This document shows, one piece after another, positions 6,864 through 9,563 of a stretch of 46,215 bases of DNA (positions are counted from its first letter, which is position 1; each line of letters begins with the position of its first letter). The DNA lies in assembly GCA_001785115.1 (NCBI GenBank), contig MFSU01000057.1, positions 2,930 through 49,144 of the forward strand, read 5' to 3'. The position numbers were made by a program, and so were the translations under genes. Source of the DNA: Candidatus Muproteobacteria bacterium RBG_16_65_34 (lineage in GTDB: Bacteria; Pseudomonadota; Gammaproteobacteria; Acidiferrobacterales; Sulfurifustaceae). The notes beneath the pieces were generated by a model, which was not told the DNA's origin, searched no databases, and worked only from the letters and a program-made list of their open reading frames with translations.

Positions 6864-7082
6864 GTGGCAAAAAAACCGAAAATCACCGATTTGCTGACGC
6901 TCGCCCAGGCGGCCAAGGCCTATGGCTATTCGAGCGACTACCTGCGCCGCCTTGCCGAGAAGGGCCGGCTCAAGGCCGACAAGCTCGGCAGTCAGTGGCT
7001 GACCACCTCCGGCGATGTCGAGGCCTTCCTCGTCAGCCGCGAGAAGCGCGGCGTCTACAAGAAGCGCACCAAGCGTCCTTAG
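6864..7082 (+). CDS. Small excisionase-type helix-turn-helix DNA-binding protein
   Basis: The product has 72 residues and starts at GTG 6864. The core LTLAQAAKAYGYSSDYLRRL, followed by AEKGRLKADKLGSQWLTTSGDVEAFL, is a winged MerR/excisionase-like fold. It has the helix-turn-helix, a short wing containing the conserved W, and a terminal helix. The tail is very basic (EKRGVYKKRTKRP). Such proteins bend or mark DNA, often in mobile elements. No integrase is nearby, so a role in excision is not supported and a transcriptional role is equally likely. The TAG stop forms the start of the heptamer array that follows. Confidence 0.75.
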   Translation: MAKKPKITDLLTLAQAAKAYGYSSDYLRRLAEKGRLKADKLGSQWLTTSGDVEAFLVSREKRGVYKKRTKRP

Positions 7083-7174
7083 TCCTCAGTCCTCAGTCCT
7101 CAGTCCTCAGTCCTCAGTCCTCAGTCCTCAGTCCTCAGTCCTCAGTCCTCAGTCCTCAGTCCTCAGTCCTCAGT
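7081..7174 (-). repeat. Tandem heptamer repeat (AGTCCTC), about 13.4 copies
   Basis: This is an uninterrupted array of AGTCCTC, the reverse complement of the array after bamC at 1591-1657. It begins at the stop codon of the upstream HTH gene. The two arrays form long inverted repeats 5.4 kb apart, flanking the metallo-hydrolase, purL and the HTH gene. Confidence 0.97.
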
Positions 7175-7218
7175 CTCACTGCCCGCGTTCGGCGGCATCC
7201 CTTAAAATCGTTCGGGTC

Positions 7219-7247
7219 TTTACAATAGCACGACATCGTGCTAAATA
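7219..7247 (+). promoter_or_regulatory. Putative promoter with palindromic operator in its spacer
   Basis: TTTACA (7219-7224) and TAAATA (7242-7247) are 17 bp apart, ideal for a sigma-70 promoter, although the -10 is weak. The spacer is filled by a perfect palindrome, TAGCACGA-CA-TCGTGCTA (7226-7243). A repressor bound there would block polymerase. The nearest candidate regulator is the XRE-family protein encoded downstream at 7438, which suggests autoregulation. This would leave a leader of about 185 bases with no recognised gene. Confidence 0.5.
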
Positions 7248-7437
7248 TGCTGCGTGCGGGAACGGCCGTCGCCTGTGAAATAGTTTGGGAGACGGGCGCT
7301 TCGGCCGTGATTGTATTGCCTTCTTCGTCCGCACCATGCCGTTTGCAGCAGATGCGATGCAATTTGAGATGAATATGCTGCAAGACGCGCAGGATCTTCT
7401 GTAGACGTTCCTATCCGCAGCGATTGGAATAAGGCGT

Positions 7438-7719
7438 ATGGTGAGGAGAGCAAGGGATCGGCTCGCGCAGAAGCTGCGCATGCTCCGAACGATGCGCGAC
7501 TGGACCCAGGAGGATCTGGCGGCGGCGAGCGGTCTGCACCGCACCTATATCAGCCTGGTCGAGCGGGCCGAGTGCAATATCAGCCTGGATAACCTCGAGA
7601 AGCTCGCGGATGCCTTCGGGCAAAGCGTCACGGACTTGCTCGGGGCCACCGAGCCCGCGCGCTTCGACGAGCACCTGCTCGCGAAGCTCTTGAAATCCAT
7701 CAAAAGAAGGGAGTCTTAG
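7438..7719 (+). CDS. XRE-family helix-turn-helix transcriptional regulator
   Basis: The 93-residue protein has a single Cro/C1-type HTH covering about residues 10-66. It contains LRMLRTMRDWTQEDLAAASG, then LHRTYISLVERAECNISLDN, then LEKLADAFGQSVTDLL. The C-terminal tail is short and basic, with no metabolite-binding domain, as in small plasmid- or phage-type repressors. The ATG at 7438 has AAGG just upstream. The next gene, a CsrA-like protein, begins two bases after the stop, so the pair is surely one transcript. A perfect palindrome in a promoter-like sequence upstream (7226-7243) is a candidate binding site. Confidence 0.85.
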   Translation: MVRRARDRLAQKLRMLRTMRDWTQEDLAAASGLHRTYISLVERAECNISLDNLEKLADAFGQSVTDLLGATEPARFDEHLLAKLLKSIKRRES

Positions 7720-7721
7720 CC

Positions 7722-8003
7722 ATGCTCATTCTTACCCGCAAACCCGGCCAGTTGCTCACGATTGGGCCGGATCTATCGCTGGACCCCGCCACGCCCGCTC
7801 ATGAGCTTTTCCTCGACGGCCCGATCGTGTTGCTGGTCGCCGGCGTCCGCGGTTCTGTGGTCAAGCTCGGCATCCGTGCGCATCCGCGCCTGACGATCCT
7901 GCGCGAGGAGTTGCTGCCGGGCTGCGATACGGTCCCGGCGCAGCTTATCGGCGTAACCCCGCTTGGCTGGCCGGTCTTTCCACCCATCGGCCCGCGTGAG
8001 TAG
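7722..8003 (+). CDS. Enlarged CsrA-like RNA-binding protein
   Basis: The start MLILTRKPGQLLTIG matches the first strand and turn of CsrA. The block LLVAGVRGSVVKLGIRAHPR followed by LTILREEL matches strands 2-5. The RNA-contacting Leu4 and the Arg of the REE motif (here R61, equivalent to CsrA R44) are present. Unlike the usual 55-65 residue CsrA, this protein has 93 residues. About 16 extra residues (around 16-35) lie between strands 1 and 2, and about 28 Pro/Gly-rich residues follow the REEL motif. It lacks the usual amphipathic C-terminal helix. By homology it would bind GGA in mRNA leaders, but the insertion may change its partner. It is coupled to the XRE gene two bases upstream. Family membership is clear; function is inferred. 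Confidence 0.8.
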   Translation: MLILTRKPGQLLTIGPDLSLDPATPAHELFLDGPIVLLVAGVRGSVVKLGIRAHPRLTILREELLPGCDTVPAQLIGVTPLGWPVFPPIGPRE

Positions 8004-9433: not shown

Positions 9434-9563
9434 ACAGGATTAACAGGATTTCTCAGGATTAACAGGATTAAAGCTAAAAGACTCTAGCCTTCAAGATTCA
9501 AAATTGATTTTTTTATGTTGTGAATCCTGTTAATCCTGAGAAATCCTGTTAATCCTGTCTATT
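9429..9563. repeat. Perfect 41-bp inverted repeat of the ACAGGATTAACAGGATT family
   Basis: Bases 9429-9469 and 9523-9563 are exact reverse complements, separated by 53 AT-rich bases. Each arm holds ACAGGATTAACAGGATT-type units joined by TCTC. It lies between convergent genes (9131 + and 9569 -), overlaps the stop of the first and could act as a bidirectional terminator. The same units recur at 10800-10879 and 11321-11390. Confidence 0.92.

What the first reader, a model, noticed from the sequence alone, without database searches (positions are those of the whole stretch)
7438..8003. XRE regulator paired with an enlarged CsrA-like protein
The CsrA-like protein keeps MLILTR and the REE Arg but carries about 16 extra residues after strand 1 and a Pro-rich tail of about 28 residues. 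It starts two bases after a small XRE repressor-type gene. CsrA relatives are seldom co-transcribed with a Cro/C1-type regulator. The pair could couple transcriptional and post-transcriptional control, or be an addiction- or phage-derived module.
Basis: partly seen in the sequence, partly recalled or inferred. Interest (0 to 1): 0.65.

Follow-up and report, generated by a model that had tools for sequence, protein, structure and literature searches.

The report
Three-gene regulator cassette with RsmN-type CsrA
Next to a purine-synthesis gene, this bacterium carries a small conserved control cassette in which two DNA-binding proteins sit in front of an RNA-binding protein of the rare Pseudomonas RsmN type; it looks like a chromosomal switch that links control of transcription to control of translation, not a phage or toxin module.

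Summary
An XRE gene (7438-7719) and a CsrA-like gene (7722-8003) are 2 bp apart. The extra ~16-18 residues lie between strands 2 and 3, not after strand 1. The predicted fold matches only P. aeruginosa RsmN/RsmF among solved structures, and the RsmN signature residues are kept. The Pro-rich tail belongs to this species and is predicted disordered.

The pairing is not chance. It recurs in 17 of 57 genomes of the order (Acidiferrobacterales), against 0 of 74 CsrA loci elsewhere. In the window's family a third gene belongs to it, a small HTH_17 protein (6864-7082). All three genes are present together in 8 of 20 genomes, absent together in 12, and lie at a fixed chromosomal site.

The 7226 palindrome lies between a -35 and a -10 element. 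It occurs once per genome, and its sequence class follows the HTH_17 type, so HTH_17 is its likeliest binder. A second promoter, conserved in four families at near-exact distance from the XRE start codon, predicts a leaderless mRNA.

Best reading: a vertically inherited transcription/post-transcription switch built on an RsmN-type protein. No plasmid, phage or toxin link was found. Functions are inferred; no experiment was available.

The parts
6864..7082 (+). HTH_17 (excisionase/MerR-like) small DNA-binding protein, 72 aa, GTG start
   Evidence: HTH_17 E=9.4e-8, TIGR01764 excise; orthologue upstream of XRE in all 8 family genomes that carry the pair; HTH_17-XRE fusion gene in G008 (L238:3747-4223)
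7075..7175 (.). tandem array of a 7-bp unit GTCCTCA (14.4 copies) between HTH_17 and the promoter; seen only in this genome
   Evidence: Tandem Repeats Finder; absent from the homologous loci read
7219..7247 (+). putative promoter P1: TTTACA (7219-7224), 17-bp spacer, TAAATA (7242-7247)
   Evidence: read from sequence; same layout in orthologues, e.g. TTGATA-17-TATTAT in G005 and TTGACA-17-TATTTT in G039; not found by the stricter promoter scan
7226..7243 (.). palindromic operator TAGCACGACATCGTGCTA inside the P1 spacer
   Evidence: exactly one copy in each of 6 genomes of 57, always here
7402..7430 (+). putative promoter P2: TAGACG (7402-7407), 17-bp spacer, TGGAAT (7425-7430); the -10 ends 7 nt before the XRE start codon, so the mRNA is predicted to be leaderless
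   Evidence: T[ACG]GAC near -37 in 18 of 19 loci from four families, shuffled mean 0.5; pattern nearly unique per genome
7438..7719 (+). XRE (Cro/C1-type) regulator, 93 aa
   Evidence: HTH_3 E=1.7e-13; relatives at E<=1e-12 in 18 of 57 genomes of the order
7706..7713 (+). Shine-Dalgarno-like GAAGGGAG of the CsrA-like gene, inside the XRE 3' end
   Evidence: sequence and comparison of 14 junctions
7722..8003 (+). RsmN/RsmF-type CsrA-like RNA-binding protein, 93 aa, with beta2-beta3 insertion and a species-specific Pro-rich tail
   Evidence: Pfam CsrA E=8.2e-11; PDB profile search best hits RsmF/RsmN; AF2 model and Foldseek

Best explanation
This is a chromosomal, apparently vertically inherited regulatory cassette of the Acidiferrobacterales: HTH_17 gene - operator/promoter P1 - promoter P2 - XRE - RsmN-type CsrA. 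Shown by sequence: gene order, co-occurrence, the conserved palindrome in the P1 spacer, the conserved P2 element at near-fixed distance from the XRE start, the predicted RsmN fold and the conserved RNA-contact Arg. Inferred: (1) HTH_17 binds the palindrome and controls P1. (2) XRE is made from a leaderless mRNA at P2 and represses or tunes P2 through the near-palindromic CTGTMGACRG that overlaps its -35. (3) The CsrA-like protein is made from the same mRNA, its ribosome site lying in the end of the XRE gene, folds as an RsmN-type non-swapped dimer and binds GGA-containing RNAs, so that a transcriptional decision by the two DNA-binding proteins becomes a post-transcriptional programme. P1 transcripts carry a ~190-nt leader with little or no ribosome site for XRE, so P1 may mainly raise the CsrA-like protein while P2 makes both.
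For: Predicted fold matches only RsmN/RsmF in the PDB (4kji_A E=7.4e-4, TM 0.80 by target; next non-RsmN hit E=2.7). Profile search gives 4K59/4KJI at E=7.2e-12 and 9e-12 through the insertion. R6 and R61 are invariant and E63, I35, P34 nearly so in 30 members, matching RsmN Arg8, Arg62, Glu64 and its Gly-Ile motif (PMC3791407). Pair in 17 genomes against 0 of 74 control loci. HTH_17, XRE and CsrA-like together in 8 of 20 family genomes and absent together in 12; flanks kept at sites without the cassette. Palindrome only at this locus. Operator class follows HTH_17 class: AATAGCACG type in seven loci, AATATCC type in G005, G039 and G020-C49, TTCCCAC type in G020-C92; loci without HTH_17 lack a comparable palindrome. 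HTH_17-XRE fusion in G008. P2 in 18 of 19 loci.
Against: No expression, binding or genetic data. GGA motifs in the P1 leader are not significantly enriched (29 against 22.4 +/- 3.7, 5.6% of shuffles reach it; ANGGA 5 against 5.2), so autoregulation through the leader is unproven. In the window the P1 -10 (TAAATA) and the P2 -10 (TGGAAT) are weak and the promoter scan reports nothing. The window has AAGG just before the XRE start, so leaderless translation is not certain. The G009 operator has a degraded half-site. The operator-HTH_17 match rests on about a dozen, partly related loci, and the P1/P2 hexamers were assigned by eye. XRE binding to the palindrome is not excluded.
Confidence: 0.6

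Rival explanations
1. XRE alone is the repressor of both promoters: it binds the 7226 palindrome, and HTH_17 has another job.
For: XRE proteins typically bind short palindromes near their own promoter; its profile resembles HipB and restriction-control-protein families; G005 and G039 share both the XRE recognition segment GLDRSYVSSIER and the AATATCC operator.
Against: XRE loci without HTH_17 (f6, f4, G020-C24, G020-C92a) have no comparable palindrome, while a palindromic promoter follows HTH_17 genes even where the XRE is of another subtype (G020-C49, G020-C92b).
Confidence: 0.25
2. The pair is a remnant or cargo of a mobile element (prophage, ICE or genomic island), as for the Legionella lvrR-lvrC genes, serving that element's excision or transfer.
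For: CsrA homologues are frequent on mobile elements (PMC7366521); Legionella lvrRABC pairs a repressor-like gene with a CsrA gene and regulates island excision (PMC3864950); HTH_17 resembles excisionases; G020 and G008 carry many XRE or CsrA copies.
Against: Fixed chromosomal site between housekeeping genes in the family; no plasmid or phage match; no mobility gene was recognised in the immediate flanks read.
Confidence: 0.15
3. Toxin-antitoxin-like addiction module in which XRE is the antitoxin and the CsrA-like protein is the toxic partner.
For: XRE followed at 0-15 bp by a small gene is a usual layout; XRE profile similarity to HipB-type antitoxins; some XRE paralogues in G020 are followed by BrnT-like proteins.
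Against: The partner is an intact RNA-binding regulator with conserved Arg, not a nuclease or kinase; the cassette is cleanly absent from 12 of 20 family genomes; no toxin family hit.
Confidence: 0.05
4. The CsrA-like protein is an ordinary CsrA paralogue that drifted beside an unrelated XRE gene.
For: Elsewhere in the class, insertion-type CsrA genes mostly lack an XRE neighbour.
Against: Adjacency in four families of the order, joint absence, HTH_17-XRE fusion, and further XRE-CsrA neighbourhoods with other CsrA types in G008.
Confidence: 0.05

Closest known systems
RsmN/RsmF of Pseudomonas aeruginosa (PDB 4KJI, 4KRW, 4K59)
   Same: ~16-residue helix insertion between beta2 and beta3, no C-terminal helix, Arg62/Arg8/Glu64 equivalents, Gly-(Pro)-Ile after the insertion, best sequence and fold match
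   Different: rsmN lies antisense between PA5183 and PA5184 (PMC3791407) and no XRE/HTH_17 partner is described there; here it is the last gene of an XRE pair, about 33% identical, and this species adds a Pro-rich tail
Canonical CsrA/RsmA
   Same: MLILTR start, GGA-RNA contact Arg, CsrA Pfam domain; this genome also has a canonical csrA (C36)
   Different: no insertion, domain-swapped dimer, C-terminal helix, not paired with XRE
Legionella lvrRABC (repressor-like LvrR with CsrA-like LvrC) and CsrT of Legionella ICEs
   Same: a repressor-type gene in one regulatory cluster with a CsrA-family gene
   Different: four genes, SOS-type repressor domains, linked to type IV secretion on genomic islands; here a fixed chromosomal site, HTH_17 + XRE, RsmN-type protein
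Lambda cI / PRM
   Same: Cro/C1-type regulator with a promoter placed so that the mRNA starts at the AUG (general knowledge for lambda; only predicted here)
   Different: no phage genes, and the second product is an RNA-binding protein

Membership tests
RsmN/RsmF-type CsrA | about 16-residue insertion between beta2 and beta3 with helical propensity | tested here: met
   helix 26-29 between strands 13-16 and 36-43
RsmN/RsmF-type CsrA | RNA-contact Arg62 equivalent | tested here: met
   R61 invariant in 30 members
RsmN/RsmF-type CsrA | Arg8-Glu64 salt-bridge pair | tested here: met
   R6 invariant and E63 at least 90% conserved; the residues are present, the bridge itself was not measured
RsmN/RsmF-type CsrA | Gly-Ile motif after the inserted helix | tested here: inconclusive
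   here G-P-I (33-35); I35 and P34 are nearly invariant, a Pro is added
RsmN/RsmF-type CsrA | C-terminal helix of RsmA missing | tested here: met
   no confident helix after residue 64; many homologues end at 68-70 aa
RsmN/RsmF-type CsrA | fold resembles 4KJI/4K59 rather than domain-swapped CsrA | tested here: met
   Foldseek: only 4kji, 4k59, 4krw at E<0.004
RsmN/RsmF-type CsrA | non-swapped dimer that binds ANGGA RNA | not testable with these tools
   only a monomer model could be made; needs structure and binding assays
RsmN/RsmF-type CsrA | common descent with Pseudomonas RsmN | tested here: inconclusive
   45-column tree without the insertion groups RsmN and all 30 insertion-type sequences with 4 of 62 canonical ones, local support 0.91; too few columns
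XRE (Cro/C1) regulators | HTH_3 domain above curated cut-off | tested here: met
   50.8 bits, cut-off 23
Type II toxin-antitoxin module | toxin gene next to the antitoxin | tested here: not met
   neighbour is CsrA-like; no toxin family hit
Prophage / plasmid / ICE regulator | homologues on phages or plasmids | tested here: not met
   tblastn with a close family member: no match in phages or plasmids; fixed chromosomal site
Prophage / plasmid / ICE regulator | integrase, att sites or transfer genes around the cassette | not tested
   flanks were read for synteny; no systematic integrase or att search was made
Legionella lvrRABC | LvrR with SOS-type repressor/peptidase domain, linked type IV secretion genes | tested here: not met
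   XRE is 93 aa with HTH only; neighbours are purL and a lytic transglycosylase

The most novel reading that the evidence does not exclude
A three-protein genetic switch unlike any described: an excisionase-like HTH_17 protein and an XRE protein made from a leaderless mRNA control, through two dedicated operators present once per genome, an RsmN-fold RNA-binding protein, so that one promoter mainly yields the RNA regulator and the other yields regulator plus repressor, giving a choice between two translation programmes.
Probability: 0.25. Interest if true: 0.7.

Novelty: new variant of a known kind. Interest (0 to 1): 0.52.

Why it matters
The RsmN fold was described as a Pseudomonas peculiarity (PMC3791407); here it appears as a family with matches in 35 of 57 genomes of this order and 22 of 369 sampled genomes of the class. 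In this order it is tied to its own transcription regulators, which shows how an RNA regulator of the global CsrA kind can be put under dedicated local control on the chromosome, and it offers defined operators that can be tested directly. It also shows that CsrA paralogues paired with repressor genes need not be mobile-element cargo.

Tried and rejected
Phage or plasmid origin: no match in either collection. GGA enrichment in the P1 leader as evidence for CsrA autoregulation: not significant. Known RNA family at the locus: Rfam gave only sub-threshold matches elsewhere in the loci, none at the leader. A wider regulon for the palindrome: none, one site per genome. HTH_17 outside the order: no match beyond G000 and G002 in a 369-genome sample of the class. 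Defence-system reading: PADLOC hits for XRE are generic control proteins. Common descent with Pseudomonas RsmN: a short-column tree is compatible but inconclusive; an IQ-TREE run timed out. No paper on a CsrA-XRE operon was found with the terms tried. A second structure prediction and the viral fold library were not used.

Full report
WHAT IS THERE. The two genes exist at the stated coordinates, two bases apart, on the + strand. Pfam places the first in HTH_3 (50.8 bits, cut-off 23) and the second in CsrA (42.2 bits, cut-off 27). A third small gene upstream, 6864-7082, is an HTH_17/excisionase-type DNA-binding protein. The same genome also has a canonical csrA (C36) and a second insertion-type copy (C52).

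THE ENLARGED CsrA IS OF THE RsmN TYPE. An alignment of 30 relatives from this and other families shows the same insertion in all. M1, L2, R6 and R61 are invariant; I14, F30, P34, I35 and E63 are at least 90% conserved. AlphaFold gives high confidence over residues 1-60 (block means 89-95) with strands 2-6, 13-16, 36-43, 46-52, 57-60 and a helix at 26-29, so the insertion lies between beta2 and beta3. Foldseek against the PDB returns only RsmN/RsmF entries at E<0.004 (4kji, 4k59, 4krw; target TM 0.72-0.80), the next hit being at E=2.7. The profile search agrees (4k59 E=7.2e-12, 4kji E=9e-12) and aligns through the insertion, whereas canonical CsrA aligns in two pieces. The RsmN paper describes a 16-residue helical loop between strands 2 and 3, a missing C-terminal helix, Arg62 as the RNA contact, an Arg8-Glu64 salt bridge and a Gly-Ile motif (PMC3791407); the first four have equivalents here and the fifth reads Gly-Pro-Ile. 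The Pro-rich tail is peculiar to this sequence and has low confidence.

DISTRIBUTION. A profile of the family finds members in 35 of 57 genomes of the order at E<=1e-5 and in 22 of 369 sampled genomes of the class at E<=1e-10. Outside the order it mostly lacks an XRE neighbour. Within the order the XRE gene lies directly upstream in 17 genomes of four families: f1 (8 genomes), f2 (G020), f4 (G040, G044, G046) and f6 (5 genomes). In 74 CsrA loci of other taxa, none has an XRE directly upstream and one has one within 500 bp. No plasmid or phage record matches.

A CASSETTE AT A FIXED SITE. In the window's family, HTH_17, XRE and the CsrA-like gene of the pair occur together in G000, G002, G005, G007, G008, G009, G010 and G012, and are absent together from the other 12 genomes. 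The order HTH_17 - palindrome - XRE - CsrA - lytic transglycosylase is kept in nearly all, with purL upstream, directly or at a distance, in several. In genomes without the cassette the flanking genes remain: pgl and a cupin gene are followed by the transglycosylase and the small ORF 9131 in G004 and G011, and similar flanks are seen in G001 and G003. This looks like gain or loss as a unit at one chromosomal place. Some genomes in the absent group are incomplete drafts, but several are 91-99% complete. A systematic search for integrases or att sites around the cassette was not made.

TWO PROMOTERS. P1: the palindrome TAGCACGACATCGTGCTA (7226-7243) lies between TTTACA (7219-7224) and TAAATA (7242-7247). 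The pattern TAGCACG-N4-CGTGCTA occurs once in each of six genomes of the order, always here, and not at all in the other 51. Where the HTH_17 protein is of another type, the spacer palindrome differs: AATATCC...GGATATT in G005 and G039, ATATCCGGATAT in G020-C49, TTCCCAC...GTGGGAA in G020-C92. Loci with XRE but no HTH_17 lack a comparable palindrome. This makes HTH_17 the likelier binder; it is inference from about a dozen, partly related loci. A gene fusing HTH_17 with XRE in G008 (L238:3747-4223) supports joint action. P2: T[ACG]GAC lies near -37 from the XRE start codon in 18 of 19 loci, with only one or two stray copies elsewhere in the 120 nt; shuffles average 0.5 loci. A -10-like hexamer follows at 17-18 bp in most loci and ends about 7 nt before the ATG, and most loci lack a ribosome site there, which predicts a leaderless mRNA. 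The combined pattern is nearly unique: seven hits in 57 genomes, five of them XRE promoters of this type. The shuffle test does not correct for relatedness, but the element is kept in four families while its surroundings are not.

HOW IT MAY WORK. The CsrA-like gene starts 0-15 bp after, or overlaps, the XRE stop, with a ribosome site inside the XRE end in most loci, so both proteins probably come from one mRNA. The P1 transcript has a leader of about 190 nt in the window and little or no ribosome site for XRE, so it may favour the CsrA-like product. GGA motifs in that leader are not significantly enriched, so a loop through the leader is not shown. The RNA targets are unknown.

RELATION TO KNOWN SYSTEMS. 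By the features tested the CsrA-like protein belongs with RsmN/RsmF; dimer form and RNA binding could not be tested. Pairing a repressor-type gene with a CsrA gene has a precedent in Legionella lvrRABC (PMC3864950), which differs in genes, domains and mobile location. CsrA homologues on plasmids and phages are common in Pseudomonas (PMC7366521), which is why that rival was tested. No paper on an XRE-CsrA operon was found with the terms tried.

VERDICT. It is a new variant of a known kind: an RsmN-type regulator in a dedicated chromosomal cassette with two DNA-binding partners and its own operators.

Noticed in passing
L238:2621-2962; L245:3023-3535; L251:2273-2674 (G008): Proteins with two CsrA domains in tandem, next to XRE genes of the same subfamily: possible built-in CsrA dimers.
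   Followed up: no
L174:1-4144 (G002): A third insertion-type CsrA with an XRE gene 122 bp upstream lies beside DndC- and DndD/PbeC-like DNA-modification defence genes.
   Followed up: partly
L235:2860-3050, L236 and L237 (G020): Leaders of HTH_17-XRE copies without CsrA share GCATCGCCC...GGCGACT and CCCCGAG...CTCGGGG hairpins with compensating changes, then a terminator-like hairpin before XRE; no Rfam match. Possible structured RNA or small RNA.
   Followed up: partly
L235:3628-3936; L250:1792-2091 (G020): XRE paralogues followed by BrnT-like small proteins (judged from sequence only).
   Followed up: no
window 7075-7175: 14-copy tandem array of GTCCTCA at the HTH_17 stop codon, only in this genome.
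   Followed up: no
window 9434-9558: Short inverted arrays of ACAGGATTA / TGTTAATCC that mimic a microRNA hairpin in Rfam (L171:4360-4493); a spurious sub-threshold match.
   Followed up: no
L157, L173 (G002): Insertion-type CsrA divergent from an XRE gene 131 bp away, a rearranged version of the pair.
   Followed up: no
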